In this document: positions 29,215 through 46,700 of the stretch, in pieces | Layout of the letters: each line of letters starts with the position of its first letter | How positions within the stretch are numbered: position 1 is the first letter of the stretch | Source: Armatimonadota bacterium | GTDB lineage: Bacteria; Armatimonadota; Chthonomonadetes; Chthonomonadales; Chthonomonadaceae | Direction of reading: 5' to 3' | Length of the DNA stretch: 64,000 nucleotides | Assembly: GCA_028871815.1 (NCBI GenBank) | Contig: JAGWMJ010000002.1 | Location: 310,001 to 374,000, forward strand | Notes under the pieces: generated by a model | Databases searched by the model: none | What the model was told of the DNA's origin: nothing | The model's input: only the letters and a program-made list of their open reading frames with translations | Made by a program: the position numbers and the translations under genes

Positions 29215-29688
29215 ATGACGGTTGATTTGCCGGCGGATGTGGCCGCTGCGTGCGCGCCGCTGTTCGAGCTACTGCCGATCACGCGGGCCATGGGGACATT
29301 GCTATCCGGCGCCGAGCAGTGTACCGACGTGGTGCGGCAGGTTATTGCCGAGCCGGCGGTCGCGCCCAATCCGGCGCTCGTCGCAGGATTATGGCTGTTC
29401 GTGGATGACCTCACACGGAGCCACACGGTGAGTCAGGGAATCGAGGGACCAACCGGCGCGTGGTGGCATGGCATCATGCACCGCCGGGAAGGCGATTTCA
29501 ACAACAGTCTCTACTGGATGGCCCGGGCGTCAGGTCACCCACTGCTGGCTGAGCAGCCGCAGCTGGCGCCCGCGGCCCTTGTTACAGCCGCAGGGGCCAC
29601 CGGCGCCGCCAATCCGCCCGATCTTGTGAGGCGCCAGCGGGAAGAGTGGGTGGCGCTCTTCAGCTGGTGTGCGCGGAACAGGGCCTGA
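29215..29688 (+). CDS. Conserved-looking hypothetical protein, 157 aa
   Basis: A soluble, helical 157-residue protein with a strong GGGAGGA ribosome site. Distinct segments are WLFVDDLTRSHTVSQGIEGPTGAWWHGIMHRREGDFNNSLYWM. The WHGIMHRREGD stretch, with two histidines and acidic residues, could bind a metal. I do not recognise the family. It is divergent from aroF, and the next gene on the same strand starts 179 bp later with its own promoter. Confidence 0.7.
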   Translation: MTVDLPADVAAACAPLFELLPITRAMGTLLSGAEQCTDVVRQVIAEPAVAPNPALVAGLWLFVDDLTRSHTVSQGIEGPTGAWWHGIMHRREGDFNNSLYWMARASGHPLLAEQPQLAPAALVTAAGATGAANPPDLVRRQREEWVALFSWCARNRA

Positions 29689-29841
29689 GTTTCAACGGCG
29701 AGCGGCGGCGGCGCCGCGCGTGGGCTTCGCAGGCAGTTCAACCGCAAACCGCCCGCTCAGCGCAGATTCTCCCGATCATATTGGCCGAGCGCAGTCTTTA
29801 TCTTATGGAAGAGCCGGAGCAGGCCCGGAACCTGCCTGTAG

Positions 29842-29850
29842 TGGTACAAT
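29842..29850 (+). promoter_or_regulatory. Extended -10 promoter of the caspase-FGE locus
   Basis: TGGTACAAT (extended -10 TGnTACAAT) is placed so that transcription would begin about 10 bases before the ATG at 29868. No -35 box is recognisable at the normal distance. Confidence 0.4.
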
Positions 29851-29867
29851 CGCGCACGATACCGACT

Positions 29868-30731
29868 ATGAAACCTTTTACCAAAGTATTCGCCTTGATC
29901 GCGCTGGCGGCAGTCGGTTCCGCGCCGGCGGCCGCTTCCGGCCATCGCTGGGCGCTGGTGGTTGGCGTGGAGCACTACAAGAACTCCGATATCGAGCCCC
30001 TCCGCTACGCGGAGGCGGATGCCACTTCGGTGGCCTCCGCCCTGGAGAAGAGCCTCGGTTTCAACGCCAGGCGCGTGCGGGTGATGACCAGCGCGGTGTC
30101 GGACACCACCCAGCCGGATTGTCCTACCAACGTGCACGTCATCGACGCGCTCAACGCCATGGCAAACAGCGTCGGGCCGGACGATACGTTTGTATTCTAC
30201 TTGTCCGGCCATGGCTTCAGCCGCGGTGACGAAAGCTTTCTGGGCACCATAGAGACGGACGCCACATCCATCGATACGCTGCGGCTCAGTACAATCCCGC
30301 TCTCGATGCTGCAGAATGTGATGAAGCGGGTAAAGGCCCGGCAGGTGGTCTTCATGATCGATGCCTGCCGCAATGATCCGGAGCGCGACAAGGGCGGCGG
30401 CGAGAACGTTCGCACGGCCGGCTTCAGCAAGAGCCTGGAAGTAGCGGCCCGGCCCGCTGCCGCGCTGGGGGGCGGCAGCGCGGTGTTGTTTGCCTGCGCG
30501 GATGGGCAGCGCGGTTACGAGGATCCATCGCTGGCCCACGGCGCGTTCACCTACTACCTGGTCAGCGCGCTTAAGGGGGCCGCCGCGCTGGCGGGAGAGC
30601 CGCTTTCCGCGGCGCAGGTGGCCGGTTACGTGCTCGAAAAGGTGACCGCCTGGGCCCGACAGCACAGCCGACAGCCATCCTACTGGCCAACAGCGTGGCC
30701 GGCACGCAGCTGCCCCAGGGCTGCGCAGTGA
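29868..30731 (+). CDS. Caspase-like (peptidase C14) protease, probably the 5' part of a broken fusion gene
   Basis: A 287-residue product with a signal-peptide-like N-terminus (FALIALAAVGSAPAAASG) and then a caspase/metacaspase fold. The catalytic dyad is H115 (FYLSGHGFS) and C167 (FMIDACRND). The start of the fold is RWALVVGVEHYKN, and the segment HGAFTYYLVSALKG is typical. From about residue 264 the frame no longer resembles the family. A -1 shift near 30668 gives a sensible continuation (PTAILLANSVAGTQL) into the next ORF, so caspase, PEGA and FGE units were probably one polypeptide. The frameshift could be a real mutation, recoding or a sequence error. The next ORF overlaps by 37 bp. Confidence 0.85.
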   Translation: MKPFTKVFALIALAAVGSAPAAASGHRWALVVGVEHYKNSDIEPLRYAEADATSVASALEKSLGFNARRVRVMTSAVSDTTQPDCPTNVHVIDALNAMANSVGPDDTFVFYLSGHGFSRGDESFLGTIETDATSIDTLRLSTIPLSMLQNVMKRVKARQVVFMIDACRNDPERDKGGGENVRTAGFSKSLEVAARPAAALGGGSAVLFACADGQRGYEDPSLAHGAFTYYLVSALKGAAALAGEPLSAAQVAGYVLEKVTAWARQHSRQPSYWPTAWPARSCPRAAQ

Positions 30732-33700
30732 AGCAGATGGATACGAGCGTGCGCGTCTCGGTAGTCACCGAGCCGCCCGGGGCTGCCGTCTCGTTGGATG
30801 GCGTGCCCGCAGGCGTGACTCCGGCAGAGATTCCCGTGGAGCTCGGGCTGCACGCAACGTGGCAGGCGCAGGTGGCCGTCACGCTTTTCGGATTCCAGCC
30901 CGTTCTCTACCGTGTTACGCTGGCGCGCGGTCACTCTACGATCATTCCGCCGGATGTGCTGCACGAAGAGACCGGCGCGCAGCCCGGGTTGCCAGCGGGC
31001 CGCGCCGGTGGGCCGCCAGTCGAGGACAGCGGCCTGGCGGCAGGCGCGGTCCGGACCAACCCGAAAGACGGCGCGGAGATGGTCTGGATACCGCCGGGTC
31101 CCTTCCAGATGGGTGACAGCGATCAATATGGCAACCAGCCACATACGGTGACGCTCAGCGGTTTCTGGATGTACAGAAACAATGTGACGGTCACGGAGTA
31201 CCGCACCTTCTGCGATGCTGCGGGCCGGCGGATGCCGCCCGCGCCGCAGTTCGACCCGACCTGGAGCCAGGGCGATCACCCGATCGTCAACGTGACGTGG
31301 GACGACGCTGCAGCTTACGCGAAGTGGGCAGGCTGCGAGCTGCCGACGGAGGCGCAGGGGGAAAAGGCCGCGCGCGGCACGGACGGGCGGAAATACCCGT
31401 GGGGCAGCGATTGGGACAGCTCGAAACTCTGGTGCAGCAAGTCCCGGTTTGGCGACGCGGGCGGCACGACGGCCGTTGGCCATTACGGCGTGAGCCCCTA
31501 CGGCTGCAGCGACATGGCCGGCAACGTGTTTGACTGGTGCCGGGACTGGTACCACGAAGCTTTCTGGAGCGGTCGTGCCGGCGAGCAGCCGGACCCCGTG
31601 GACCTTGCGCCGGGGCAGGAGCGGGTTATTCGCGGCGGCACGTGGAAGATGAACGATCCGGTGGGCTTCCGCGCGTCGTACCGGTACATCAGCGCCCCGG
31701 CGCTCAGCTTCGACTACATCGGTTTTCGTTGTGCTTTGCGCGCCGGCTCGCCCTTGGATACGGGCGTGCGCCTCTCGGTAGTCACCGAGCCGCCTGGGGC
31801 TGCCATCTCGTTGGATGACGTGCATGCCGGCGTGACTCCGGCAGAGATTCCCGTGGACCTCGCGGTGCAGGCAACGCGGCAGGCGCAGGTGGCCATAACG
31901 CTTCCCGGATTCCAGCGCGTGCTATACCGTGTCACGCTGGAGCGCGGCCACTCCACGATCATTCCGCCGGTTGCGCTGCGCCGAGAGACCGGCGCGCAGC
32001 CCGGGTCGCCGGCGGCCGGCGGCGGTTCGCCATCCGTCGAGGTCCACGGCCTGGCGAAAGGCGCGGTCCGGTCCAACCCGAAAGACGGCGCGGAGATGGT
32101 CTGGATACCGCCGGGGCCCTTCCAGATGGGTGACAGCGATATTGCTGACAACTCGCCGCATTCGGTGACGCTCAGCGGTTTCTGGATGTACAAAAACGAC
32201 GTGACGGTGCAGGAGTACCGCGGCTTCTGCCGGGCAACCGGTCGGCAGATGCCGCCCGCACCGTCCTTCGACCCGAACTGGAGCCAGGGCGATCACCCGA
32301 TCGTCAACCTGACGTGGGACGACGCCGCAGCTTACGCGATGTGGGCAGGCTGCGAACTGCCGACGGAGGCGCAGTGGGAGAAGGCCGTGCGCGGCACAGA
32401 TGGGCGGAGATACCCCTGGGGCAACGATTGGGACATCTCGAAACTCTGGTGCAGCAAGTTCCAGGGTGGCGACGCGGGCGGCACGACCGCCGTGGGGGAC
32501 TACGGCGTGAGCCCCTACGGCTGCAGCGACATGGCCGGCAACGTATTGGACTGGTGCCGGGACTGGTACCACGAAGCCTTCTGGAGCGGTCGCGCCGGCA
32601 AGGAGCCGGACCCCGTGGACCTTGCGCCGGGGCAGTACCGGGTTCTGCGCGGCGGCTCGTGGGACCTCAACGAACGAGTGAGCTTCCGCGCCTCGGTCCG
32701 GAACGGCAATTGCCCGGCGAACGGAAACAACTGCACTGGCTTCCGTTGTGCTTTGCGCGCGGGCTCGCCTTTGGATACGAGCGTGCGCCTCTCGGCAGTC
32801 ACCGAGCCGCCCGGGGCTGCCGTCTCGTTGGATCGCGTGCCCACCGGAGTGACGCCGGCAGAGATTCCCGTGGACCTCGGGCGGCAGGCAACTCGGCAGG
32901 CGCAGGTGGCCATCAATCTTACCGGATTCCAGCCCGTTCTCTACCCTGTGACGCTGGAGCGCGGCCACTCTACGATCATTCCGCCGGTTATGCTGCGCGA
33001 TGAGGCCCGGGCGCGACCCGGGTCGCCGACGGGCGGCGGCGGTGGGCCGCCAGTCGAGGGCAGTGGCCTGGCGGCGGGCAAGGTCCGGACCAACCCGAAA
33101 GACGGCGCGGAGATGGTCTGGATACCGGCTGGGCCCTTCCAGATGGGTGACAGCGGCCAGCGTGACAACCCGCCGCATACGGTGACGCTCAGCGGTTTCT
33201 GGATGTACAGAAACGATGTGACGGTGACGGAGTACCGCACCTTCTGCGATGCTGCGGGCCGGCGGATGCCGCCCGCGCCGTACTTCGACCCGACCTGGAG
33301 CCAGGGCGATCACCCGATCGTGAACGTGACGTGGGACGACGCCGCAGCTTATGCCAGGTGGGCAGGCTGCGAACTGCCGACGGAGGCGCAGTGGGAGAAG
33401 GCCGCTCGCGGCACGGACGGGCGGAAATACCCGTGGGGCAGCGATTTTGACAGCTCGAAACTCTGGTGTTCCAGGCGCGGCACGACCGCCGTGGGCCACT
33501 ACGGCATGAGCCCGTACGGCTGCAGCGACATGGCCGGCAACGTGGCTGACTGGTGCCGGGACTGGTACCACCAAGCTTTCTGGAGCGGTCGCGCCGGCGA
33601 GCAGCCGGACCCCGTGGACCTTGCGCCGGGGTGGGGCCGGGTTGTGCGCGGCGGCTCGTGGGGCAGCGGCGCACCATTGTACTTCCGCGCGGCGCACCGG

Positions 33701-33772
33701 AACGGCAACGGCCCGGCGTACAGCAACGCCAGCATCGGCTTCCGTTGTGCTTTGCGCGCGGGCTCGCCTTGA
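30695..33772 (+). CDS. Triple PEGA-FGE protein carrying three DGR-type variable regions
   Basis: A frame of 1025 residues made of three near-identical units of about 335 residues. Each unit has a PEGA domain (VVTEPPGAAVSLD..GVTPAEIPV, about residues 18-90, 355-430 and 695-770). An FGE-sulfatase/C-type-lectin domain follows (start MVWIPPGPFQMGDS; core DDAAAYAKWAGCELPTEAQ; CSDMAGNV.DWCRDWYH). Each ends in a hypervariable segment of about 42 residues (308-349, 647-688, 980-1021) between RVxRGG and GFRCALR. FGE-fold proteins are classical DGR targets, where the fold displays the variable residues as a binding surface. Formylglycine synthesis itself is unlikely. Unit 1 has AQGEK where the others have AQWEK. 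The GTG at 30695 or ATG at 30737 lack a good ribosome site, consistent with frameshift from the caspase gene. Confidence 0.85.
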   Translation: MAGTQLPQGCAVKQMDTSVRVSVVTEPPGAAVSLDGVPAGVTPAEIPVELGLHATWQAQVAVTLFGFQPVLYRVTLARGHSTIIPPDVLHEETGAQPGLPAGRAGGPPVEDSGLAAGAVRTNPKDGAEMVWIPPGPFQMGDSDQYGNQPHTVTLSGFWMYRNNVTVTEYRTFCDAAGRRMPPAPQFDPTWSQGDHPIVNVTWDDAAAYAKWAGCELPTEAQGEKAARGTDGRKYPWGSDWDSSKLWCSKSRFGDAGGTTAVGHYGVSPYGCSDMAGNVFDWCRDWYHEAFWSGRAGEQPDPVDLAPGQERVIRGGTWKMNDPVGFRASYRYISAPALSFDYIGFRCALRAGSPLDTGVRLSVVTEPPGAAISLDDVHAGVTPAEIPVDLAVQATRQAQVAITLPGFQRVLYRVTLERGHSTIIPPVALRRETGAQPGSPAAGGGSPSVEVHGLAKGAVRSNPKDGAEMVWIPPGPFQMGDSDIADNSPHSVTLSGFWMYKNDVTVQEYRGFCRATGRQMPPAPSFDPNWSQGDHPIVNLTWDDAAAYAMWAGCELPTEAQWEKAVRGTDGRRYPWGNDWDISKLWCSKFQGGDAGGTTAVGDYGVSPYGCSDMAGNVLDWCRDWYHEAFWSGRAGKEPDPVDLAPGQYRVLRGGSWDLNERVSFRASVRNGNCPANGNNCTGFRCALRAGSPLDTSVRLSAVTEPPGAAVSLDRVPTGVTPAEIPVDLGRQATRQAQVAINLTGFQPVLYPVTLERGHSTIIPPVMLRDEARARPGSPTGGGGGPPVEGSGLAAGKVRTNPKDGAEMVWIPAGPFQMGDSGQRDNPPHTVTLSGFWMYRNDVTVTEYRTFCDAAGRRMPPAPYFDPTWSQGDHPIVNVTWDDAAAYARWAGCELPTEAQWEKAARGTDGRKYPWGSDFDSSKLWCSRRGTTAVGHYGMSPYGCSDMAGNVADWCRDWYHQAFWSGRAGEQPDPVDLAPGWGRVVRGGSWGSGAPLYFRAAHRNGNGPAYSNASIGFRCALRAGSP
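31616..31740 (+). repeat. Variable region 1 (DGR-type)
   Basis: A 125-bp segment from the codon before xxCRGG to TGTGCTTTGCG. Compared with the other five copies, about 20 codons differ, mostly in bases 1-2. Fixed codons give TW, F, R, PA and GFRCALR. This copy is internal, followed by a second PEGA domain, and reads AAG-ATG-AAC after the fixed TGG. Confidence 0.75.
32633..32757 (+). repeat. Variable region 2 (DGR-type)
   Basis: The same 125-bp frame as copy 1. It reads GAC-CTC-AAC after the fixed TGG and AAC-GGC-AAT-TGC after the fixed CGG. It retains many A-containing codons (AAC, AAT), so it may be close to the inferred template. It is internal, followed by a third PEGA domain. Confidence 0.75.
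33632..33756 (+). repeat. Variable region 3 (DGR-type)
   Basis: A 125-bp copy at the 3' end of the triple-unit gene. It reads GGC-AGC-GGC after TGG and AAC-GGC-AAC-GGC after CGG. It is followed by the GC-rich tract GCGCGGGCTCGCC and the stop codon. Confidence 0.75.
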
Positions 33773-33865
33773 CTCTGCACTTTGACTCCTTTCCGTTTTA
33801 CCGGTGCCGGAGGGCGGTTCATCAGCATCGCGATTTGCCGAGAAACGGCCGACGAGGAGCGCAAC
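33757..33865 (+). promoter_or_regulatory. Conserved variable-region flank and duplicated 5' leader, copy 1
   Basis: A GC-rich tract is followed by CTCTGCACTTTGACTCCTTT and then a 50-bp block (GCATCGCGATTTGCCGAGAA and GAGGAGCGCAAC) with the ribosome site GAGGAG. The block recurs at 34837-34945 before the next gene. The first part (through CTCTGCACTTTGACTC) recurs a third time at 36727. The GC-rich tract could serve as the initiation-of-mutagenic-homing sequence; the rest looks like a duplicated promoter/leader. Confidence 0.5.
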
Positions 33866-34852
33866 ATGGAATGGCTATCTGCGAGCAGAGTAAGATCGAT
33901 GAGCGCCGGAGCGCCACCCCGCCGGCGAGGCGCTCGCGTGCGCGTGTCGCTGCGTAGATGGGCCGCACGACGGTGCGTAGGGCCGGCCGCAACGGCTGCG
34001 GCGCTCTGCTGCGCCGCAGGGTCCTGGACCGTGGTCGGCGGTACTGCGCGGCCGCAGAAGCGGCCGGGCACGCGGGTGACCTATGCCGTGCGTGGCACTG
34101 CGGATGCAGGCGGCAGCCCGGCGCCGGTCGTACTGCGCACGAAGCAGCGGCGCAACCCGAAAGACGGCGCGGAGATGGTCTGGATACCGCCAGGCTCCTT
34201 CCAGATGGGTGACAGCGACCAGTCTGACAACCCGCCGCATCGGGTGACGCTGAGCGGGTACTGGATGTACAGGAACGACGTGACGGTGCAGGAGTATCGC
34301 AGCTTCTGCCGGGCAACCGGTCGGCGGATGCCGCCCGCGCCGTCCTTCGACCCGACCTGGAGCCAGGGCGATCACCCGATCGTCGACGTGACATGGGACG
34401 ACGCCGCAGCTTACGCGAAGTGGGCAGGCTGCGACCTGCCGACGGAGGCGCAGTGGGAGAAGGCCGCCCGCGGCACCGACGGGCGGAAATACCCGTGGGG
34501 CAGCGATTGGGACATCTCGAAACTCTGGTGCAGCAAGTCCTTGTATGGCGATGCGGGCGGCACGACCGCCGTTGGCCATTATGGCGTGAGCCCGTACGGC
34601 TGCAGCGACATGGCCGGCAATGTGTGGGACTGGTGCCGGGACTGGTACCACAAAGCCTTCTGGAGCGGTCGCGCCGGCGAGCAGCCAGACCCCGTGGACC
34701 TTGCGCCGGGGCAGAACCGGGTTGTGCGCGGCGGCTCGTGGAAGCTCTACCTACCAGTGAACTTCCGCACGTCGAACCGGGGCAGCGGCAATCCGGCGAA
34801 CTACAACTACGACGGCGGCTTCCGTTGTGCTTTGCGCGCGGGCTCGCCTTAA
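33866..34852 (+). CDS. Single-FGE protein with one DGR-type variable region
   Basis: A 328-residue protein starting MEWLSASRV after GAGGAGCGCAAC. It has an alanine-rich, probably membrane-targeting segment (about residues 34-58, AATAAALCCAAGSW), a linker, and one FGE-sulfatase/C-type-lectin domain (about 98-328). It lacks the PEGA domain of the preceding protein. The domain is almost identical to the other five except in the C-terminal variable segment (residues 283-324). GFRCALRAGSP ends the protein. It is closely related, including its leader, to the following gene, pointing to recent tandem duplication. Confidence 0.85.
   Translation: MEWLSASRVRSMSAGAPPRRRGARVRVSLRRWAARRCVGPAATAAALCCAAGSWTVVGGTARPQKRPGTRVTYAVRGTADAGGSPAPVVLRTKQRRNPKDGAEMVWIPPGSFQMGDSDQSDNPPHRVTLSGYWMYRNDVTVQEYRSFCRATGRRMPPAPSFDPTWSQGDHPIVDVTWDDAAAYAKWAGCDLPTEAQWEKAARGTDGRKYPWGSDWDISKLWCSKSLYGDAGGTTAVGHYGVSPYGCSDMAGNVWDWCRDWYHKAFWSGRAGEQPDPVDLAPGQNRVVRGGSWKLYLPVNFRTSNRGSGNPANYNYDGGFRCALRAGSP
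34712..34836 (+). repeat. Variable region 4 (DGR-type)
   Basis: A 125-bp copy. It reads AAG-CTC-TAC after TGG, AAC before the fixed TTC, and GGC-AGC-GGC-AAT after CGG. After the fixed CCG-GCG it has five NNC codons. It is terminal to its gene. Confidence 0.75.
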
Positions 34853-34945
34853 CTCTGCACTTTGACTCTTTTCCCTTTTCCCGCCGCCGGAGGGCAATTC
34901 ATTGGCATCGCGATTTGCCGAGAAACGGCCGACGAGGAGCGCAAC
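34837..34945 (+). promoter_or_regulatory. Conserved variable-region flank and duplicated 5' leader, copy 2
   Basis: The same arrangement as copy 1: a GC-rich tract, CTCTGCACTTTGACTCTTTT, then the block through GAGGAGCGCAAC. The last 50 bp are identical to copy 1 up to the ATG and into the first seven codons. Confidence 0.5.
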
Positions 34946-36730
34946 ATGGAATGGCTATCTGCTGGCGGAGTAAGAGGGATGAGATCCGGCGCGCCAACCC
35001 GCTGGCCAGGCGCTCACGTGCGCCCGCCCCTGGGTAGCTGGACCGCAGCGGCTGCGGCGCTCTGCTGTGCCGCAGGGTCCTGGGCGGCGGTCGGCGGTAC
35101 TGCGCAGCCGCAGAAGCGGCCGGGCAAGTCGGTGACATACACCGTGCGCGGCACTGCGGATGCAGCCGGCAGCCGGGCGCCAGTCGTACTGCACGCGAAG
35201 CAGCGGACCAACCCGAAAGACGGCGCGGAGATGGTCTGGATACCGCCGGGGCCGTTCCAGATGGGTGACAGCGACCAGTCTGACAACCCGCCGCGTCGGG
35301 TGACGCTGAGCGGATTCTGGATGTACAAAAACGATGTGACGGTGACGGAGTATCGCCGGTTCTGCGATGCTACGGGTTGGCGGATGCCGCCCGCGCCGTC
35401 CTTCGACCCGACCTGGAGCCAGAGCGATCACCCGATCGTCTGGGTGACATGGGACGACGCTGCCGCTTACGCGAAGTGGGCAGGCTGCGAACTGCCGACG
35501 GAGGCGCAGTGGGAAAAGGCCGCTCGCGGCACGGACGGGCGGAAATACCCCTGGGGCAGCGATTGGGACATCTCCAAACTCTGGTGCAGCAACTCCCAGT
35601 ATGGCGACGCTGGTGGCACGACCGCCGTTGGCCATTACGGCATGAGCCCCTACGGCTGCAGCGACATGGCCGGCAATGTGTGGGACTGGTGCCGCGACTG
35701 GTACCACAGAGCTTTCTGGAGCGGCCGCGCCGGCGAGCAGCCGGACCCCGTGGACCTTGCGCCGGGGCTGTACCGGGTTGTGCGCGGCGGGTCGTGGCTC
35801 TACGACTTACCGACGGCCTTCAGCGCGTCGTACCGGTACTACGATAGCCCGGCGAACTGCGACGGCTACAACGGTTTCCGTTGTGCTTTGCGCGCGCGTC
35901 CCGTTCCGGCTCTGGCCGCGCCGACCACAGCTGTTGCCGTCGCGGCGCCGCCGAGCGAAGCCGGGATCGGCGTACAGCCGCCCCGGCCGGCAGCGCAGGC
36001 GGACGTTCCCGCGAAAGGCGCGGTCCGAAAGAACCCGAAAGACGGCGCGGAGATGGTCTGGATACCGCCGGGTCCGTTCCAGATGGGTGACAGCGATCAG
36101 GAAGACAACCCGCCGCATAGGGTGATTCTGAGCGGTTTCTGGATGTACAAAAACGATGTGACGGTGACGGAGTATCGCCGGTTCTGCGATGCTACGGGTC
36201 GGCACATGCCGTCCGTGCCGATATTCGACTTGACCTGGAGCCAGGGCGATCACCCGATCGTCAACGTGACATGGGACGACGCTGCAGCTTACGCGAAGTG
36301 GGCAGGCTGCGAACTGCCGACGGAGGCGCAGTGGGAGAAGGCCGCGCGCGGCACGGACGGTCGTAAATACCCGTGGGGCAGCGATTGGGACATCTCGAAA
36401 CTCTGGTGCAGCAAGTCCTTGTATGGCGACGCGGGCGGCACGACGGCGGTGGGCCACTACGGCATGAGCCCGTACGGCTGCAGCGACATGGCCGGCAATG
36501 TGTGGGACTGGTGCCGCGACTGGTACCACAGACCTTTCTGGAGCGGCCGCGCCGGCGAGCAGCCGGACCCCGTGGACCTTGCGCCGGGGCAGCTCCGGGT
36601 TATTCGCGGCGGATCGTGGTACGAGGGCAAGCCAGGGGTCTTCCGCTCGCCGTACCGGTGGGACCGCTTCCCGGCGGACAAGGACTCCACCTTCGGCTTC
36701 CGTTGTGCTTTGCGCGCGGGCTCGCCTTAA
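34946..36730 (+). CDS. Double-FGE protein with two DGR-type variable regions
   Basis: A 594-residue paralogue of the preceding protein: the same leader, the MEWLSA start and an alanine-rich segment near residues 34-58. Two FGE-sulfatase domains follow (about 92-316 and 365-594) joined by a 45-residue proline/alanine linker instead of a PEGA domain. The variable segments are residues 275-316 and 549-590. In the first, the end reads GFRCALRARPVPA, so the downstream GC tract is modified and the copy is internal. The linker may act as an extended spacer displaying two lectin heads. Confidence 0.85.
   Translation: MEWLSAGGVRGMRSGAPTRWPGAHVRPPLGSWTAAAAALCCAAGSWAAVGGTAQPQKRPGKSVTYTVRGTADAAGSRAPVVLHAKQRTNPKDGAEMVWIPPGPFQMGDSDQSDNPPRRVTLSGFWMYKNDVTVTEYRRFCDATGWRMPPAPSFDPTWSQSDHPIVWVTWDDAAAYAKWAGCELPTEAQWEKAARGTDGRKYPWGSDWDISKLWCSNSQYGDAGGTTAVGHYGMSPYGCSDMAGNVWDWCRDWYHRAFWSGRAGEQPDPVDLAPGLYRVVRGGSWLYDLPTAFSASYRYYDSPANCDGYNGFRCALRARPVPALAAPTTAVAVAAPPSEAGIGVQPPRPAAQADVPAKGAVRKNPKDGAEMVWIPPGPFQMGDSDQEDNPPHRVILSGFWMYKNDVTVTEYRRFCDATGRHMPSVPIFDLTWSQGDHPIVNVTWDDAAAYAKWAGCELPTEAQWEKAARGTDGRKYPWGSDWDISKLWCSKSLYGDAGGTTAVGHYGMSPYGCSDMAGNVWDWCRDWYHRPFWSGRAGEQPDPVDLAPGQLRVIRGGSWYEGKPGVFRSPYRWDRFPADKDSTFGFRCALRAGSP
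35768..35892 (+). repeat. Variable region 5 (DGR-type)
   Basis: A 125-bp copy. It reads CTC-TAC-GAC after TGG and TAC-TAC-GAT-AGC after CGG. It has an AGC in place of the otherwise fixed CGC after TTC. The 3' GC tract is altered (GCGCGCGTCCCG instead of GCGCGGGCTCGCC). Confidence 0.7.
36590..36714 (+). repeat. Variable region 6 (DGR-type)
   Basis: A 125-bp copy at the 3' end of the locus. It reads TAC-GAG-GGC after TGG and TGG-GAC-CGC-TTC after CGG. It is followed by the intact GC tract and the stop codon. Confidence 0.75.
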
Positions 36731-36915: not shown

Positions 36916-37695
36916 CTAGGGCGCCCATTCAAAACGCAAGCACTCGGCCATGGGGCCTTGCATGGCCGCTGCGCCGCTGTAACCCGGGGCAAGGTCGCCA
37001 CACGCCACCGTCCAGAGGCCGCCGATGCCGTCAGCTTCGGAGGTCAGGTCGAGTTCAAAGCGGCTCAACGGGTCCAGCGGAACATCAAACGCTTTCAAAT
37101 CCAGATAGAGGCCGGCGCCAACCGCCTTGATCATCGCCTCTTTGCGGGTCCAGCAGTCGAAAAATGCCCGCTCGTGCTCGGCTCGCGGCAGCGCGGTTAG
37201 AATCGCAACTTCGGCCGGGGAGAAGAAGGCATCGGCCACGGTCAGGTAGTCGTCGGTCAGGGCGTTACGCTCCACGTCCACGCCAACGCGCCCGCCGGCT
37301 GCAATGGCGAAGGCGCACCAATCGCCGCTGCGTGATGCGTTGAATTGCAATCCGCTCTGTTCGGCGCTGCCGGCAAGGTGGGGCTTGCCGAGCGCGCCGG
37401 TGCGAAACTCAATCTCTCCCGGCGGCATACCGAGGTAGTCGCCCAGTACGCGACGGAGAATGCCGTGCATGGCAACAAAGCGGTCACGATCAACCGGCTG
37501 CACGAACGCGGCTGCGCGGGCAAGCTCCTCGTCGTTGAGCACGCCGGCATCCGCTTCGCGAACACGCCACCACGCGTCGGTCCGGGCGCGCCATACATGC
37601 AATACGTGTGGGGCGGGACCTTCGACGCGACTCGATACGGCGGTCCACTCCGTTACTGCTGGTCCCGCGCTCCCTCGCGATTTCGCTGCAGACAC
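36916..37695 (-). CDS. 4'-phosphopantetheinyl transferase (Sfp type)
   Basis: A 259-residue Sfp-type enzyme that transfers the 4'-phosphopantetheine arm of CoA to carrier domains. The magnesium- and CoA-binding motif is GVDVE (D140, E142), and the second motif is WTRKEAMIKAVG (W182, K185, E186, K190). FNASRSGDW is the usual histidine/serine region, with asparagine-alanine-serine in place of the common S-H-S. The length fits the longer Sfp group. Its 5' end overlaps the 3' end of the downstream-most synthetase gene by 43 bp, with no later start codon that preserves the fold. It is therefore translationally linked and almost certainly activates those synthetases. Confidence 0.93.
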   Translation of the reverse strand: MSAAKSRGSAGPAVTEWTAVSSRVEGPAPHVLHVWRARTDAWWRVREADAGVLNDEELARAAAFVQPVDRDRFVAMHGILRRVLGDYLGMPPGEIEFRTGALGKPHLAGSAEQSGLQFNASRSGDWCAFAIAAGGRVGVDVERNALTDDYLTVADAFFSPAEVAILTALPRAEHERAFFDCWTRKEAMIKAVGAGLYLDLKAFDVPLDPLSRFELDLTSEADGIGGLWTVACGDLAPGYSGAAAMQGPMAECLRFEWAP

Positions 37696-40600
37696 GCCTT
37701 CAGCCTCTCTGCCAGAAATCGTACACGGGGCTCGGCCATGATCGCGCCATGATATCCCGGCACCACATGTACTTCGATGCCGCCCTCAGCCAGTCCTGCC
37801 CAGCCTAAATTCGGGTCCTCTACGACGCCGGTTGGCTGGCGGCTGCCGTTGAACAGGGTGATCCGGCCGGCATACGTTGACGGCCGATAGGCAGCGGCTG
37901 CACGGCGCACGTAGTGCGGTTTTGCCTCCAGCTCCGGCGGTACCGGCCGGCCCGCGGCGCGGCGCAATCGCCGGGCCGCAGCCTTCATGTGGCCCTCAAT
38001 GGCCCACTGCGCCTCCAGGCGGGCCCGCCGCGTTTTGTCCCGTACGTATGCCGCCCGTCGACCTGGCGGCAGCAGCCGGAGGCTGCCGATGTGGTGCTCC
38101 ACAACCCGGGCCATGTTGCCCAGTTTTTGACGGAGTTTGCCGAAGCCCTTGCGGAATACCGGGTAGTCGGGATGGAACGCGTCAAACATCGCCACGATTC
38201 CCAGCGTCTGGCCGGCGGCCGCCAACTGCCTTGCCATCTCAAAAGCAATCATGCCGCCTAGTGACGAGCCGCCGATGTAGTACGGGCCTTCCGCCTGGAT
38301 CATCCGGATTTCGCGCACGTAGTCGGCGGCCATCGCCTCCACGCTTTCGTGCGGCGGAAGCTTTCCGCCGACATGCCGCGCCTGAAGCGCATAGAATGGC
38401 TGGTCGGCGCCCAGCCGGTTCGCCAGATCGCGGTACCACAGAACTTCCGATCCGGCAGCGTGTACGCAGAAGAACGGTGGCAGCGAGCCTTCGGTTTGAA
38501 TCGCCACCAGCGAAGCAAACCCGGCCTCGGGGTGGCCGCTCTCGATTACGGTTGCAAGCTCGCGCACTGTTGGGTACCGGAACAGCGTGGCCAGCGGCAG
38601 CCGCTCGCCAAACACCTTTTCAATCTGCGCGAACAGACGCACCGCCGTGAGGGAGTGACCGCCCAGCGCAAAGAAGTTGTCCAGCGCGCCAACCGTGCGA
38701 ACGCCGATCACGTTCTCCCACAGCCGTGCCAACTGCCGCTCCACACGAGTTTGCGGCTCCGACCCGGCAGCGCCGGCGGGCGCCGGGTCCATTTCCGGGT
38801 TAGGTAGCTGCTTTCGATCCGCCTTACCGCTGCTATTGGTTGGAATGCGTTCAACCCGCTGGAACACCGCCGGCGCCATGTAGTCCGGCAGCGTGGTGAG
38901 CAGGTGCTGCCGCAACGCGCCCGGCTCCAGTTCGTGCTCGGCGGTGTACCACGCCACAAGGCGCTCGTCTCCATTCGTATCGCTCCGCACACCAACGGCA
39001 CACGCGCCAATGCCGGCAAAAGCGCCGAGCGCGCTCTCGACTTCGCCCAGCTCAATTCGAAATCCGCGCAGCTTAATCTGGTCGTCGAGGCGGCCCAGAA
39101 AGTCCAGTTCGCCATCTGCCCGCATCCGCGCGGCATCGCCGGTCCGGTATAGTCGCCGGCCGCCGAGTCCGGGAAATGGATTCTCCACAAACTGTTCGGC
39201 CGTTCGCTCCGGCTGATTGACGTACCCTTCGGCCAACCCTTCGCCGCCGATGTACAGTTCGCCGGGAATCCCCACCGGCATAAGCTGCATGCCGCCATCC
39301 AGGACGACCAGCCGGACGTGCGGCAGTGGGGCGCCAATACAGACGGCGGCCGTGAGGGCATCATCGGCGGTTACCCGGCGTCGAGATGCCCAGATGGTTG
39401 CCTCCGTTGGGCCGTAGACGTTCCACACCGGCACGCCCAGCGCGAGCGCAGCCGGAACCAGCGAGCCGGGAAAGGCTTCGCCTCCTACGCTGAGCATCCG
39501 AAGCGCTGGTGCGCGCTCAGCGCCGGGCGCCAACGCCGCGCCACAGAGCAGCTGCAGCGCGGATGGCGTGATCTGCACCACGCTCACGCCGGCGTCAACG
39601 ATCAACTTCCAGAGCGCATCACCATCCATCGCCGTGTTTGCCGGCGCCAGCACAAGCCGGGCGCCGCTGCTGAGTGCGTTCCAGATTTCCCATCCGCTCA
39701 CGTCAAAGCCAACGCTGTGGATCCCGGAGAAGACGTCTTCGGAAGAGAAACCGAACGGTGCGCGGCAGCTCTGGATGCGGCCCGCAAGGCTGCGGTGCGA
39801 AATCGCCACTCCCTTCGGACGGCCGGTGGACCCAGAGGTGAACAGAATATAGGCCGCATCGTCGGGCCGGCACTCCCGGTGGCGACAAGATGCGGCCGGC
39901 ACGCTGCCGGCATCGTCGGGCGTCAACACAGCTCCGGCATAGCCGGCCTGTGCCGGAATCTGGCGGTCCGCCGTGATAAACGCCTTCGGCGCTGCGTCTT
40001 CCAGCATCTCGTGGATCCGCGCCGCAGGAAGAGTAGGCTCCATCGGCACGTACGCGGCGCCGGCTTTCCATGCGCCGATCAGCGCCGCGATTATATCGGT
40101 CGATCGCGGCAGACAGACGGCCACGGCGTCTCCGGGCTGCACCCCGGCCTGCTGCAGGACGGCGCCGAATTGCCGCGCGCGATCGTCCAGTTCACCATGG
40201 CTGAGGCGACTCGAGCCGAACCGGAGCGCCTCGGCGGCGCCGCGCGTATGCGCCCACTCGGCAAGCACCGCCGGCAGCAGCGGTGGCGGCAGCAATTCGG
40301 GGGTATCGCGCGACCATCCGGCCTCCAACTGCCGGTTTTCGTCGCCAGTGAGGAGCGGCAGCGAGCCTATTTCGCTGTCGGCTTGCCGGATTCCACCGCG
40401 CAAGAGGGTGCAGTAGTGGCCAAGCAGGCGGTCGATGAAATCCGGGTCAAACAGGTCGGTGCAGAACTCGCACGTTGCGGACCAGCCATCCGCGCTGCGG
40501 GCAACCTGCAGCGTGAGATCGCACTTCGCGCTTCCGTTGTCGGTCTCCACGTATCGCAGCGAAGCCGCGCCCATCGGTATCGGCTCCTCCGGTAAGTCGA

Positions 40601-43600
40601 TCGTCTGAAACATCACGGAGAATATCGGCGATCGGCTCATGTCGCGCGGCAGCAGCAGCCCATCCACCAGGCTCTCAAGAGCCGCCTCCTGCCGCTCCAT
40701 CGCAAACCGCGTGCTTTCCGCCGATTCGCGGACCAGCGCGTTGAACCGCTGCGATGCCGCGGCGTGGATGCGGAGCGGTACGGTATTGGCCACATAGCCC
40801 ACCAGCGATTCGCACTCCGGCGTCACGCGATTGGACATTGGAGTGCCGATCGTGATGGAACCGCGCTGCGTGGTGCGGAACAGCAATGCTGCAAACGCGG
40901 CCAATGCCGTTGCGAACGGCGTAACACCATGTGCGCGGCTGAACGCTTCCAGCTCGTGGTCCAGGTCCTGTCCGAGCGGGAGAGTCCGCTTCGCTCCCCG
41001 GTAGGTAAAGATGCCGGGACGCGGTCGCTGCGCAGGAAGCTCAAACGGCTCCAGGTCCTCCTTGAGCCACTCCTGCAGCTCCAACCGGGCGCGGCATACC
41101 GGTTCGGATGCCAGCCGCTGATCCAGCCAGATGGCATAGTCGCCGTACTGGGTCGCGTGCACTTCGGGTGGTTGGCCGCCGCGGCTGAGAGCGCCGTAGT
41201 TGGCCGCCAGTTCCTGCAAGAGCAGGCGAAACGATGCCGCGTCGGTCACCGCGTGGTGAAGCGTCCACAAGAGGCGATGTTCCTCATCGCCCAATCGCAG
41301 CAGCCTCCATCGGGTAAGCGGGCCGGTCTCCAGGCAGAACGGCCGGCGGCTCTCCTCGTACGTGATGGCTTTGGCCGTCGCCTCGCGCTCGTCCGGGTCC
41401 AGTTCCCGGAGGTCGGTCACCGGTAACGGAGAAAACTCCCAGGTGGCGAACTGCTGGGCAGGCTCGCCATCCGTTGCCGGCAGCAGGAGCCGTAGCGCTT
41501 CGTGCCGCTTCACGATGGCGTTCAGCGAGGCCGCAAGCGCTTCGTGATCCAGCGGGCCATCCAGGCGCAGGTCCAGCAGTTGAACATACGCGGCACCGTC
41601 GGGCTGCCACCGGTCGAGGAACCATACTCTCTTCTGCGGAGGCGTACACGGCACAGCGGTATCGCCAGGCGGGCGAGGTCGGATCGCGGTCGCGGGCTGC
41701 GCCTCGGCTTCGAGCGCGGCGGCCATGTCGGTCAGGACAGGATGTGTGAAGGCAATGGTTGCGGGTACCTGACGTCCGCATGCTTCGCCAATCCGCGCCG
41801 CAACGCGAGCCGCCTTCAGTGAGGTGCCGCCCAGTGCGAAGAAGTGCGCGCTGCGCCCCGGCGGCGGGATGTTCAGTACGGCCTGCCACGCTGCGGCAAC
41901 CATGCGCTCTGCATCGGTCTCGGGTTCATCTCCATCACCGACGGCTGCATCAATCTGCACGGTGCGGTTGACGTATTTACCCGTCTGCCACTGCTGCCGC
42001 AGTGTCGCGCGAGCTATTTTGCCGATCCCGGTGCGCGGAAACTCGTCCGGCTCGAGCAGTACCAGAACGGAAATCTGCGCGCCCGTCAATGCGCCCACCC
42101 GAGCCCGGATCTCCGCGCAGATCCGGTCACGGTCCGCGGCATCGCCCTTCGTGGAGACGAACACTGCCAGGGAGTCGGTATCGGAATCTGCCAGGCGCAC
42201 CGCGCAGGCGGCCGCATGTGATGGAACGACGCCGGCGACAACCTCAACGGCCGCCTCGATTTCGTGGCATCCAAAGTTGCGGCCATTGACAATCACAACA
42301 TCCTTGTTGCGGCCGGCAAGGGTCAGCCGGCCATGTCGAAGTATGCCGAGGTCCCCTGTGCGAAACCAGCCGTCCGCCGTGAATGCCTCGGCGTTAAGCG
42401 CTGGGTCGTGGTAATAGCCGTCGGTTACCGTATCGCCACGAACTTCGAGGCTGCCGGTCTCGCCGTCTGCCGCCTCCGATCCATCCTCTCGCAGAACCCG
42501 AAACTGAACGCCGGGGAACGGCGGGCCGACTTCAACCGGGCTGTCATCATCCGGTCTGCCCGCACGAAATGCCGTTGAAACGGCCACCGCGGAGGAGGTC
42601 TCCGACATGCCCCAGGCCGGATGCATGGCGGTTTCCGAAAGTCCCGATGCCGCCAATCGCTGCATGAAGCCGCTGGCGGTGCGGCGCACAACCGTCTCAC
42701 CGCCATTGAGGATTACACGCAGCGCCGAGAGATCCCACCTGCGGTCCGGCGCGGCATCGAGCGCTTCGTTGGCGAGACCAAAGGCGAAGTTTGGCGCCCA
42801 CGTCACGGTGACCCGATAGCGCTCCAGCCAGTCCAGCCAGAGCAGGGGATCCTGCAGCACAGGCGCCGATGTGCCGTGGGCCTGCGTGGCGCCGAGCACC
42901 ACGTCGCGCAGGTGGAACATCACCAACCCCACAACGTGATCGAGCGGAAGCCAGTTCAGGGTTGTGTCGGCGCCGTCTATTGCGCAGACGGCGGCTTCCG
43001 CCAGCGACCGGGCAGCGATGTTGGCGTGCGAAAGAGGAACCAGTTTCGGAGTCCCGGTGCTGCCCGAAGTGAGCAGCATCAGAGCCGCTGAGGCTGGAAG
43101 AGGCATCTCAGTGCGGCCGGGCGGTGAACCCCTGCGCAGCTCGGATACCGAAGCAGTTCGCCACGCGGCGCGTTCCGCCGGATTCATGGCGGCCGGTTCA
43201 TTGTCGGATGGCGCGTCGCGGATCAGCAGCGGACGATCGAGCGCATCCCAGGCCGACCGTATTCGCGAGGCGATCGTTGTGCCGACCGCTGCATCGCCCG
43301 GTGTTCGCACCGGCACCGGTACAACGCCGGCGCAAAAGCAGCCCCACAGTGCCTCAAAGAACGCCTCAGGCGCTCGAATATCCAGGAGCGCAACGTCACC
43401 GGACCGACAGCCAAGCTCCCGCAGACCGCCGTGGATGCATCGCGCTGTCTCAAGGAGTTCGGCATACGAAACCGGGTGCGGGCTGTCGCGGCCGTTGAGG
43501 TGCAGTATGCCGCGGTCGCTATTGTTTGCCGCTCTTGCGAGATATTCGGGAAGCGCGAACCGGCTGCCGGCCGTTTCCACTTCGGCCGCATCCGTGCCGC

Positions 43601-43622
43601 ATCGGTAGAATGTTTGTGTCAC
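37653..43622 (-). CDS. NRPS: acyl-AMP ligase-PCP-C-A-PCP-TE
   Basis: A 1989-residue synthetase. In order: an AMP-ligase of the fatty-acyl/loading type (about 20-570; TSGSTGTPKLVPLSHAN, GMSETSSA, GWFRTGDLG), and a carrier (FFALGGTSLKA, near 597). Next comes a condensation domain (PCTPPQKRVWF; active HHAVTDA near 789). An adenylation domain (about 1100-1570; LFTSGSTGRPKG, FDVSGWEIW, NVYGPTEATIW), a second carrier (FFALGGHSLTA, near 1654) and a thioesterase (CVHAAGSEVLWY; GxSxG as GGSSLGG near 1786) follow. The expected logic is to load an acyl or aryl acid, join it to one amino acid and release. The start is uncertain: the GTG used follows AGGGA, and an upstream GTG (43679) or TTG (43688) would add 19-22 residues. 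The amino-acid specificity code (roughly D-V-W-Q-L-V-V-I-W) matches none I can assign. Confidence 0.9.
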   Translation of the reverse strand: MTQTFYRCGTDAAEVETAGSRFALPEYLARAANNSDRGILHLNGRDSPHPVSYAELLETARCIHGGLRELGCRSGDVALLDIRAPEAFFEALWGCFCAGVVPVPVRTPGDAAVGTTIASRIRSAWDALDRPLLIRDAPSDNEPAAMNPAERAAWRTASVSELRRGSPPGRTEMPLPASAALMLLTSGSTGTPKLVPLSHANIAARSLAEAAVCAIDGADTTLNWLPLDHVVGLVMFHLRDVVLGATQAHGTSAPVLQDPLLWLDWLERYRVTVTWAPNFAFGLANEALDAAPDRRWDLSALRVILNGGETVVRRTASGFMQRLAASGLSETAMHPAWGMSETSSAVAVSTAFRAGRPDDDSPVEVGPPFPGVQFRVLREDGSEAADGETGSLEVRGDTVTDGYYHDPALNAEAFTADGWFRTGDLGILRHGRLTLAGRNKDVVIVNGRNFGCHEIEAAVEVVAGVVPSHAAACAVRLADSDTDSLAVFVSTKGDAADRDRICAEIRARVGALTGAQISVLVLLEPDEFPRTGIGKIARATLRQQWQTGKYVNRTVQIDAAVGDGDEPETDAERMVAAAWQAVLNIPPPGRSAHFFALGGTSLKAARVAARIGEACGRQVPATIAFTHPVLTDMAAALEAEAQPATAIRPRPPGDTAVPCTPPQKRVWFLDRWQPDGAAYVQLLDLRLDGPLDHEALAASLNAIVKRHEALRLLLPATDGEPAQQFATWEFSPLPVTDLRELDPDEREATAKAITYEESRRPFCLETGPLTRWRLLRLGDEEHRLLWTLHHAVTDAASFRLLLQELAANYGALSRGGQPPEVHATQYGDYAIWLDQRLASEPVCRARLELQEWLKEDLEPFELPAQRPRPGIFTYRGAKRTLPLGQDLDHELEAFSRAHGVTPFATALAAFAALLFRTTQRGSITIGTPMSNRVTPECESLVGYVANTVPLRIHAAASQRFNALVRESAESTRFAMERQEAALESLVDGLLLPRDMSRSPIFSVMFQTIDLPEEPIPMGAASLRYVETDNGSAKCDLTLQVARSADGWSATCEFCTDLFDPDFIDRLLGHYCTLLRGGIRQADSEIGSLPLLTGDENRQLEAGWSRDTPELLPPPLLPAVLAEWAHTRGAAEALRFGSSRLSHGELDDRARQFGAVLQQAGVQPGDAVAVCLPRSTDIIAALIGAWKAGAAYVPMEPTLPAARIHEMLEDAAPKAFITADRQIPAQAGYAGAVLTPDDAGSVPAASCRHRECRPDDAAYILFTSGSTGRPKGVAISHRSLAGRIQSCRAPFGFSSEDVFSGIHSVGFDVSGWEIWNALSSGARLVLAPANTAMDGDALWKLIVDAGVSVVQITPSALQLLCGAALAPGAERAPALRMLSVGGEAFPGSLVPAALALGVPVWNVYGPTEATIWASRRRVTADDALTAAVCIGAPLPHVRLVVLDGGMQLMPVGIPGELYIGGEGLAEGYVNQPERTAEQFVENPFPGLGGRRLYRTGDAARMRADGELDFLGRLDDQIKLRGFRIELGEVESALGAFAGIGACAVGVRSDTNGDERLVAWYTAEHELEPGALRQHLLTTLPDYMAPAVFQRVERIPTNSSGKADRKQLPNPEMDPAPAGAAGSEPQTRVERQLARLWENVIGVRTVGALDNFFALGGHSLTAVRLFAQIEKVFGERLPLATLFRYPTVRELATVIESGHPEAGFASLVAIQTEGSLPPFFCVHAAGSEVLWYRDLANRLGADQPFYALQARHVGGKLPPHESVEAMAADYVREIRMIQAEGPYYIGGSSLGGMIAFEMARQLAAAGQTLGIVAMFDAFHPDYPVFRKGFGKLRQKLGNMARVVEHHIGSLRLLPPGRRAAYVRDKTRRARLEAQWAIEGHMKAAARRLRRAAGRPVPPELEAKPHYVRRAAAAYRPSTYAGRITLFNGSRQPTGVVEDPNLGWAGLAEGGIEVHVVPGYHGAIMAEPRVRFLAERLKACLQRNREGARDQQ

Positions 43623-43729
43623 ACAGTCCCTGTGCTGCCGGCCATCGTCAGCCGTGTGCGGCGCGCGCGCACGCTTCACGCCTCGCAAAGTGACGCCGAC
43701 AGGGTGTAAATCGTTCCGTTCCGGATGGA

Positions 43730-46700
43730 TTATGCGCGCGCACTTACGGCGCGTGCAACCTGCGGCTCCGGCAGGTCAACAGCCGCCTCGGTCCTGCGCT
43801 CTTCCCGCGGCTGCAGTCGTCGCTTGAGCTCCTCGGCGAGAACGCGAACTCTGGGCTCGGCCACGATTGCTGCATGAAAGCCGGGTACGTCCACGATTTC
43901 GATGCCGCCCAGCGCCAGCCCGCGCCAGCCGAGCGTATCGTCGCGGTAAACGCCTAATGGCTGGTGCTTCGCGCGGAAGATGGTGATCGTACCGGCGTAG
44001 GGATCGGGCCGGTAGTTGGCCGCCGCCAGCCGCACATAGTGTGGCTTCGGCCGCAGGTGAGCCGGAATCTCGCGCCTCAGCAGCCGGTATGCGCGCGTTT
44101 TCCAGCCTCGCACCGCTCCCTGCACGCTCCACCGCAATTCGTCCCACGCGCGAAGCGCCTTGTCGCGCACGTAGGCCCGTCGATGTCCCGGCTGGAGCAT
44201 TGCCAGGCTGCCGCCGTGATGCTGAATCACGCGCCAGGTGTTCATCGCTTTACGAACGATCCCGCGCGCCCAGGGCCGATAGTGGGGATAATCCGTGTGG
44301 AAGGTGTCGAAGAGCGCCACGATTTGCGTTCGCTGGCCCGCGGCCTCCAGCTGTCTGGCCATCTCAAAGGCCACCAGGCCGCCGAGCGACGCGCCGCCGA
44401 TCGCGTACGGACCCTCCGGCTGCATGAGCCGTATCTCCGCCAGGTAGTCGCAAGCCATCTCTTCCACGGATCGGTGTGGGGCGCGCTGGCCGCCCACATG
44501 GCGGGCCTGGAGTGCGTAGAACGGCTGGTCACTACCGAGACGGTTGGCCAGGTCTCGGTAAAACAGCACCTCGGCGCCGGCCGCGTGCACGCAAAAGAAT
44601 GGTGGCAGAGAACCTTCAGGCTGAATTGGCACCAGTGAGGCGAAACGGCCGGCAGCCGCGCCACCATCCACAGCGGCCGCCAGCGCCTCGATCGTCGGCG
44701 CCTGAAAGAGCGTTGCCAGTGGCAACTTGACGCCGAACTGCTTCTCGATGGCTGCAAACAGGCGCACAGCCGTGAGCGAGTGGCCGCCCAGAGCGAAGAA
44801 GTCGTCGGTTCTGGCCACCGCCGGCACTCCGAGCAGACGCTCCCATATCCTGCCGATGGCCAACTCGGTGTCGGAAGCGACGCGTGGCAGATGGTCGATC
44901 TGCGCGACTTCTGCCGGAGGCGCATCCGGCAGCGCTTTGCGGTTTACCTTGCCGCTGGCGTTCAGCGGCAGGGTCTCTACCGTCACAAACACTGCCGGCG
45001 CCATGTAGGCCGGCAGGAACTGCAGCAGGTGCGCCCGCAGCCGTTCCGGCTGCAGAGCTTCGCCCGAAGATACTACCCACGCAACAAGACGGTCGTCGCC
45101 GGCGGAGTCCTTCCGGATGCCCGCTGCGCAAGCTCGCACGCTGGGGTGCTGGACCAGCACGCTTTCTACCTCTCCCAACTCCAATCGGAAGCCGTGCAGC
45201 TTTACCTGGTCGTCGGTTCGGCCGGCAAACTCCAGCGTGCCGTCTGCGCGCCAGCGAGCAAGATCGCCGCTCCGGTATGCCGGCGCGTCGCCGGATGCCC
45301 ATCGGTTGGCCACAAAGCGTTCCGCCGTCTGTTCGGGCCGCGCCAGATACCCATCCGCGATACCCGCGCCACCCAAACAGAGCTCTCCTACACATCCCGC
45401 CGGCATCAACTCACCTTGCTGATCCAGAACCATCAACCGGCTTCCGGGTAGTGGCGTTCCCATGCTCACCACACGGTCCCGGGCATCGGCCGCCGTAATG
45501 TGGTGCGCCGAGACCCAAACGGTTGCTTCTGTGGGCCCATAGAGATTCCACACCTCCGCGCCCCATGCCAGCAGCGCGGGGACTAATTCGCCCGGAAGCG
45601 CCTCGCCGCCAACGCCTACGAATCGGAGTGAACCCGCCGCCATACGCTGCGGCGGCACAGAATCGGCCAACAGCCGGGCTGCGGATGGCGTGAGGTGCAT
45701 CACGGTCACGCGCTCCTGCTCTACCAGGCGCGCTGTGGCGTCACCATCCAGGGCCAACCCGCGCGGCGCAAGAACCAGCCGTGCCCCACACGCCAGAGGG
45801 TGCCAGATTTCCCAAACCGAGAGATCGAAGGCTGCGCTATGCAGACAGCTCCAGACGTCGTCGCCGGTGAATCCGAAGTGAGCGCGCGTGCTGTGGATGC
45901 GCCACGCAAGGCTGCGTTGTGAAATCGATACGCCTTTGGGACGGCCGGTGGTGCCGGACGTGAAGATCGCGTACGCGGGTCCCCGGTCGGAAACCCGCAC
46001 CGAGGCCATTACCCGGTCCGGCATGGCGTCGGCCGTCACCGGCGTTATCACCGGCGCGGGCGCGTCCGCCAACCAGCCGGCGGTCTCAGCGATGATCGCC
46101 GCGGGGCATGCGTCGGCGCAAATCTCGTGGATCCGCGCCGGAGGCGTATCGGCTTCCACGGGAACCCACGCAGCGCCCACCTTCCAAACGCCAAGCATCG
46201 CCGCAATCAGATCGGCATTTCTCGGCAGGCTCACCAGAACATGCGTACCCGGCCTTACGCCGGCGGCGAGCAGTGCGGCGGCGAACCGGCAGGCACGCCT
46301 GTTGAGGTCGCCGTAGGTCCACGTTCGTCCCTCAGCCGTCAGAGCCGGGCGGTTGGGCTGGCCGTCGGCGGTTCGGTCAAAGCTATCCAGCACGGTCGGG
46401 TATTCGCCACCGGTGGTTACTCCGGCGCCGGCATCCATCATCCAGCCGATTTCATCATCGGCCAGCATCGGCAGGCCGTTGAGGGAAGCGCCGGGAACGC
46501 ACAGCGCAGCCTCCAGCAGGCGCAGGTAGTGGTCGAGCAGCCGCTGGATGCTGGCCTCCATGAAGAGTGCGGTGCTGTACTCGCACGATACGCTCCAGCC
46601 CTTGCTGTCCTTCGCCAGCTGAACGGTGACATCCAGCTTCGCCGAACCATTGTGCAGCTCGTGAAACTCTGCTTCAATACCGCCCCAGTTCTCCGAAGAA

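What the first reader, a model, noticed from the sequence alone, without database searches (positions are those of the whole stretch)
30695..36730. Six DGR-type variable regions in tandem FGE/C-type-lectin domains
I aligned the six 125-bp segments by eye. Invariant codons (TGG, TTC, CGG, CCG-GCG, GGY-TTY-CGT-TGT-GCT-TTG) alternate with about 20 variable codons. At most variable columns the third base is C in nearly all copies while bases 1 and 2 take any value (e.g. AAC/TAC/GGC/GAC/CTC/AGC). This fits adenine-directed mutagenesis of AAC-type template codons, as in known DGR variable repeats of FGE-sulfatase targets. The rest of each FGE domain is nearly identical between copies. Six target sites in three ORFs, three of them internal to a polypeptide, is unusual. 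Exceptions exist: unit 5 has CGC changed to AGC, and several variable columns have a non-C third base in one or two copies.
Basis: partly seen in the sequence, partly recalled or inferred. Interest (0 to 1): 0.93.

Follow-up and report, generated by a model that had tools for sequence, protein, structure and literature searches.

The report
DGR-mutated lectin domains, machinery missing
Six (in the whole genome eight) copies of a secreted sensor-like protein domain carry the clear fingerprint of a known bacterial "targeted mutation" machine (a diversity-generating retroelement), but the machine itself, its reverse transcriptase and its template, is nowhere in the available genome, so it was lost, works from DNA outside the assembly, or was missed.

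Summary
Six FGE-sulfatase (PF03781) domains in three ORFs (30695-36730) each end in a ~125-bp hypervariable stretch; two more copies of the same type lie on another contig. Variable codons are mostly NNC beyond codon bias (112 of 152, expected 75.7, z=6.75). Variation is saturated between copies whose flanks differ by only 6-8%, and is unrelated to flank divergence. Base frequencies at variable positions match eight TR-to-VR pairs found in relatives (p=0.68) and differ from background (p~1e-20). Variable columns coincide with the relatives' template AAC codons. This is the imprint of adenine-directed mutagenic retrohoming.

What fails is the complete system: this draft (98.3% complete, 22 contigs) has no RT by three searches and no template. 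Four genomes of a sister genus also lack an RT; two of them keep an intact template beside a VR that differs between species while its surroundings hardly do. So the RT is lost, or acts from unbinned or unassembled DNA. Tandem, remote and trans-acting DGR targets, and caspase links, are already published (Thiohalocapsa, cyanobacteria). Verdict: DGR-diversified targets, orphaned in this assembly; a new member of a known kind. The recurrent missing RT is the most interesting open point.

The parts
29646..30731 (+). caspase-family (C14) ORF with a signal peptide visible by eye; probable partner of the FGE ORFs
   Evidence: PF00656 E 1.8e-20; NCBIfam caspase EACC1-associated below its cut-off; PADLOC caspase
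30695..33772 (+). ORF 1: three PEGA-FGE units
   Evidence: PF03781 x3, PF08308
33782..34852 (+). ORF 2: one FGE domain; likely true start ATG near 33866
   Evidence: PF03781; start judged from the sequence
34862..36730 (+). ORF 3: two FGE domains; likely true start ATG near 34946
   Evidence: PF03781 x2
31616..31741 (+). variable repeat 1 (internal)
   Evidence: codon alignment
32633..32758 (+). variable repeat 2 (internal)
   Evidence: codon alignment
33632..33757 (+). variable repeat 3 (terminal in ORF 1)
   Evidence: codon alignment
34712..34837 (+). variable repeat 4 (terminal in ORF 2)
   Evidence: codon alignment
35768..35893 (+). variable repeat 5 (internal)
   Evidence: codon alignment
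36590..36715 (+). variable repeat 6 (terminal in ORF 3)
   Evidence: codon alignment

Best explanation
The six segments are variable repeats (VRs) written by a diversity-generating retroelement (DGR). A DGR reverse transcriptase copies a template repeat (TR) rich in AAC codons, puts random bases opposite its adenines, and the cDNA replaces the 3' end of each FGE/C-type-lectin domain. Shown: the mutational imprint in the VRs, its match to RT-TR-VR loci in the same phylum, and that the mutagenesis came after (or independently of) the domain duplications. Shown: no RT and no TR in this draft genome. Inferred: the DGR acted in this lineage and was since lost, or it still acts in trans from a replicon or contig that is not in the assembly. 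Inferred: the domains are exported ligand-binding receptors without FGE enzyme activity (variable codons overlie the FGE active-site cysteine region), possibly linked to the adjacent exported caspase.
For: NNC excess z=6.75 with columns picked by amino-acid diversity alone; Leu 8/8 CTC in the NNC columns against 22% elsewhere. Bases at 256 first and second positions (A 44, G 26, T 23, C 7%) match eight TR-to-VR pairs of the phylum (p=0.68 with retained A) and differ from background NNC codons (p~1e-20). 12 of 17 variable columns are template-N columns in relatives, 0 of 8 fixed ones (p=0.0016). Variable-site divergence is saturated and uncorrelated with flank divergence (r=-0.05; pairs 7/8, 1/3, 5/6 p<1e-13). 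Relatives: G013 (same family) has an RT with IGALTSQ motif, a TR and an FGE VR whose core mismatches are at adenine except one; further RT-TR-VR loci of the phylum target FGE domains. The DGR target TvpA (2y3c) is matched by sequence (E 4.4e-16).
Against: No RT, TR or bAvd found in the assembly (the bAvd search had no positive control). Fixed VR codons are not homogenised over all eight copies (synonymous variation equals that of the flank); only copies 2, 3 and 4 are identical there (p=0.04). Third-base exceptions are 16 of 128. No hairpin behind the terminal VRs. The 16-column NNC set was chosen partly by its third base, so only one search is an unbiased third-base test.
Confidence: 0.88

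Rival explanations
1. Sub-hypothesis A: the DGR is intact but outside the assembly. RT and TR lie on an unbinned plasmid, prophage or short contig and act in trans on eight remote targets.
For: In the sister genus, G003 and G012 carry a TR with AAC at all or nearly all variable codons beside a VR; between these two species most of the locus is 90-100% identical, the TR has one difference and the VR 25, and in G003 all 19 TR/VR differences over 117 bases are at adenines. Yet no RT is found in G003, G012, G015 or G016. Recent diversification with an RT missing from every bin suggests RTs that escape binning. Trans action is published (PMC10907252). Copies 2, 3, 4 are identical at fixed VR sites.
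Against: No TR in G000 either. G000 assembled well: 22 contigs, full-length 16S, six tandem FGE copies resolved. No match in viral contigs.
Confidence: 0.45
2. Sub-hypothesis B, relic: the DGR diversified these domains after their duplication and was then lost; the VRs now evolve by ordinary mutation and selection.
For: No RT, no TR. Fixed VR codons show as much synonymous variation between copies as the flank, as if no common template refreshes them; copies 1, 5, 7 and 8 carry private non-A changes.
Against: Copies 2, 3, 4 are identical at fixed VR sites although their flanks differ by 9-11% (p=0.04). Different copies may have had different templates.
Confidence: 0.43
3. No DGR: diversifying selection on a binding face in a GC-rich genome whose codon bias favours NNC.
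For: GC is 64% and NNC codons are common; the FGE/CLec face is a plausible target of selection.
Against: NNC excess remains after correction for codon use; CTC for every leucine in NNC columns; C is 7% at positions 1-2 against 25% in background NNC codons, and the spectrum equals that of real DGR pairs; saturation between near-identical copies.
Confidence: 0.04
4. Gene conversion among FGE paralogues shuffles a fixed set of variants.
For: Eight paralogues exist in one genome.
Against: Conversion would move blocks; variable codons differ singly, are near saturation in every pair, and fixed codons between them stay put. Block sharing was judged by eye, not tested formally.
Confidence: 0.03

Closest known systems
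Thiohalocapsa PB-PSB1 DGR 4 and DGR 5 (Dore et al. 2024, PMC10907252)
   Same: One target polypeptide with three tandem CLec domains, VR-bearing; loci without full machinery of their own, diversified in trans; peptidase partners.
   Different: There the RT and TR exist elsewhere in a closed genome and the target has a vWA domain and MoxR/VMAP partners; here no RT or TR is found and the repeats are PEGA-FGE.
Cyanobacterial remote variable proteins (PMC7517822)
   Same: VR-bearing CLec paralogues dispersed away from the RT; orthocaspase-like peptidase domains among the targets.
   Different: Those genomes contain a DGR RT; the caspase is in the same polypeptide, here it is a separate or frameshifted upstream ORF.
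Treponema denticola TvpA (PDB 2y3c), DGR target of FGE-like fold
   Same: Sequence match E 4.4e-16; known from the literature as a DGR target with a C-type-lectin/FGE fold.
   Different: Tandem domains and no RT/TR detected here; a different phylum.
DGR of G013:C398, same GTDB family
   Same: FGE target, TR with AAC codons, core mismatches at adenine.
   Different: Has RT and TR next to its VR target.

Membership tests
Diversity-generating retroelement (complete system) | DGR-type reverse transcriptase in the genome | tested here: not met
   RVT_1, the G013 RT protein, and a 7-member DGR-RT profile find nothing in G000; the same profile finds G013 at 1.7e-137. Draft genome, 98.3% complete.
Diversity-generating retroelement (complete system) | Template repeat | tested here: not met
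   blastn with an inferred TR finds only coding FGE copies and short chance hits; TGGAAYAAYAAY finds two unrelated sites.
Diversity-generating retroelement (complete system) | Accessory protein Avd | tested here: inconclusive
   PF22296 not found, but the search had no positive control.
DGR-diversified variable repeat (target) | Hypervariation limited to adenine-derivable positions, mainly codon positions 1 and 2 | tested here: met
DGR-diversified variable repeat (target) | VR at the 3' end of a C-type-lectin/FGE domain | tested here: met
   PF03781 hits and TvpA match; variable columns agree with template-N columns of relatives.
DGR-diversified variable repeat (target) | Differences between strains confined to the VR | not testable with these tools
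   No second genome of this genus and no reads; shown for the sister genus only.
Formylglycine-generating enzyme | Active-site cysteine pair | tested here: not met
   The alignment to solved FGEs puts their LCHESYC segment on the variable codons; none of the eight copies has the pair.
Known ternary or STAND conflict systems | MoxR/vWA/VMAP or STAND NTPase partners | tested here: inconclusive
   Genes scanned around the cluster show only a caspase-like protein; not every gene of the window was scanned.

The most novel reading that the evidence does not exclude
In this family of (by inference) Armatimonadota, DGR targets and templates are served in trans by a reverse transcriptase that lives outside the binned chromosome (a plasmid, phage or neighbour's element) or is too divergent for known RT profiles, so that a genome keeps many tandem hypervariable receptors without owning the mutator.
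Probability: 0.2. Interest if true: 0.75.

Novelty: new member of a known kind. Interest (0 to 1): 0.47.

Why it matters
It adds a lineage (by inference Armatimonadota) with tandem, multi-VR, caspase-adjacent, probably exported DGR targets. It also shows that the mutational fingerprint can be recognised statistically when RT and TR are missing; the large metagenome survey of DGRs states that it would not detect remote targets (PMC8144416). If the RT acts from outside the chromosome, hypermutation of receptors could be shared between replicons or cells, which would be new.

Tried and rejected
TR candidates at C1:676207 (a decayed FGE remnant), C1:244371 and C8:29524 (unrelated coding sequence) were rejected. 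Search for VR DNA and for the domain in viral contigs: nothing usable. The plasmid search gives FGE-type proteins nearly all below 60% identity. A weak RT-like match in G012 was a chance frame overlapping an unrelated gene. The AlphaFold model of unit 4 had mean pLDDT 39, so it is used for no claim and no fold search was run. Hairpins behind the terminal VRs: none. A third-base 'clock' to date the last homing was inconclusive.

Full report
Observation. The six domains, their coordinates and the ungapped ~42-codon variable stretch are real. ORF 30695-33772 has three PEGA-FGE units, ORF 33782-34852 one FGE domain, ORF 34862-36730 two. The same type occurs twice more at G000:C1:455399-456658, in two genes with signal peptides visible by eye, and once diverged at C1:676483. 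The window is G000:C2:310001-374000 of a 3.68-Mb, 22-contig genome, 98.3% complete. The phylum is by inference Armatimonadota: G224, listed as same phylum, has the same size, contig number and E-value for the RT query as the genome of locus L059, titled Armatimonadetes bacterium WAS_Bin_18; the same holds for G228 and L061.

Statistics. With 8 copies, the 19 columns with at least four amino acids give 112 NNC codons of 152; 75.7 are expected from codon use in 13,211 codons of the window (z=6.75). In the 16 NNC columns leucine is CTC 8 of 8. There, positions 1 and 2 differ in 74% and 62% of copy-pair comparisons and position 3 in 21%; the upstream domain differs in 8%, 8% and 16%. Variable-site distance does not follow flank distance (r=-0.05). 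The closest pairs by flank (7/8, 1/3, 5/6; 6-8% different) differ at 66-72% of variable positions. So the diversification came after, or independently of, the duplications.

Relatives supply the mechanism. In G013 of the same family a 338-aa RT with the DGR-type motif IGALTSQ and VRFMDD lies between an FGE target and a TR; 19 TR/VR mismatches are at A, one core mismatch is at C, and three lie at the 3' edge. Loci L105, L106, L107, L109, L110 and L111 of the phylum also combine an RT match with a TR and an FGE-type VR, with templates such as GGSWNNNNPNNFRCAYRNNNNLNNSNNNVGFR. Over eight clean TR/VR pairs, 151 of 252 adenines and 13 of 686 other bases differ. The resulting bases (G 68, T 59, C 24, A kept 101) are indistinguishable from those at the window's variable positions (G 66, T 59, C 18, A 113; p=0.68), while ordinary NNC codons of the window's genes differ strongly (p~1e-20). 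L111 was left out of the pooled counts because its two matched pieces are offset.

What is missing. RVT_1, the G013 RT and a seven-RT profile find nothing in G000; the positive controls ring. An inferred template finds only the coding copies and short chance matches, and a TGG-AAY-AAY-AAY scan finds two unrelated places. In the sister genus g4 the puzzle repeats with a twist: G003:C311 and G012:C196 have a TR about 160 bp behind the target. Between the two species the neighbourhood is mostly 90-100% identical, the TR differs at one base and the VR at 25. In G003 the VR differs from the TR only at adenines within the 117 aligned bases. Yet no RT is found on those contigs or in those genomes. 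Either RTs of this family are systematically lost in binning, or they act from other DNA, or they were lost very recently, or they are unrecognised. My data do not decide between these.

Function (inference). The nearest solved structures are FGE enzymes, and the DGR target TvpA is also matched. The segment holding the FGE active-site cysteines falls on the variable codons, so enzyme activity is unlikely. Signal peptides are visible by eye in the C1 copies, in the caspase ORF and probably in ORFs 2 and 3 from internal ATGs near 33866 and 34946 (no predictor was run). The gene upstream is a caspase-family protein (PF00656; NCBIfam caspase EACC1-associated, below its curated cut-off). Its ORF overlaps the first FGE ORF in another frame, and that ORF has no evident signal peptide of its own, so the two may be one frameshifted protein. 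Published work ties DGR-diversified CLec domains to caspase-like and other peptidases in presumed antigen sensing (PMC10907252, PMC7517822). That role is a proposal there and here.

Comparison. Tandem VR domains in one target, remote targets, trans action and degenerate loci are all known from Thiohalocapsa, and remote targets and orthocaspase-like targets from cyanobacteria. This locus is therefore a new member of a known kind. A full-text search for DGRs together with Armatimonad- found one paper, not devoted to them. The unusual part is the absence of machinery.

Noticed in passing
L097:7687-7819 (G003:C311) and L098:2199-2288 (G012:C196): DGR template repeats beside FGE targets in two sister-genus species, VR hypervariable between the species, with no reverse transcriptase found in either genome.
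   Followed up: partly
window 29646-30731 and 30695-33772: Exported caspase-like ORF overlaps the first PEGA-FGE ORF in a different frame; possibly one frameshifted caspase-(PEGA-FGE)x3 protein.
   Followed up: partly
G000:C1:676190-676470 (minus strand), in L065: Decayed remnant of an FGE gene just downstream of a diverged FGE copy.
   Followed up: partly
window 36916-49822 (minus strand): Two ~2000-aa NRPS ORFs (AMP-binding, condensation, carrier, thioesterase) and a phosphopantetheinyl transferase, directly next to the FGE cluster.
   Followed up: partly
window 33740-33870 and 34820-34950: The gene unit including its leader is tandemly duplicated; likely true starts are internal ATGs near 33866 and 34946 rather than the listed TTG codons.
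   Followed up: no
G063 and G065 (loci L105, L109): Single genomes of the phylum with several DGR-RT-like matches each (7 and 9 matched pieces).
   Followed up: no
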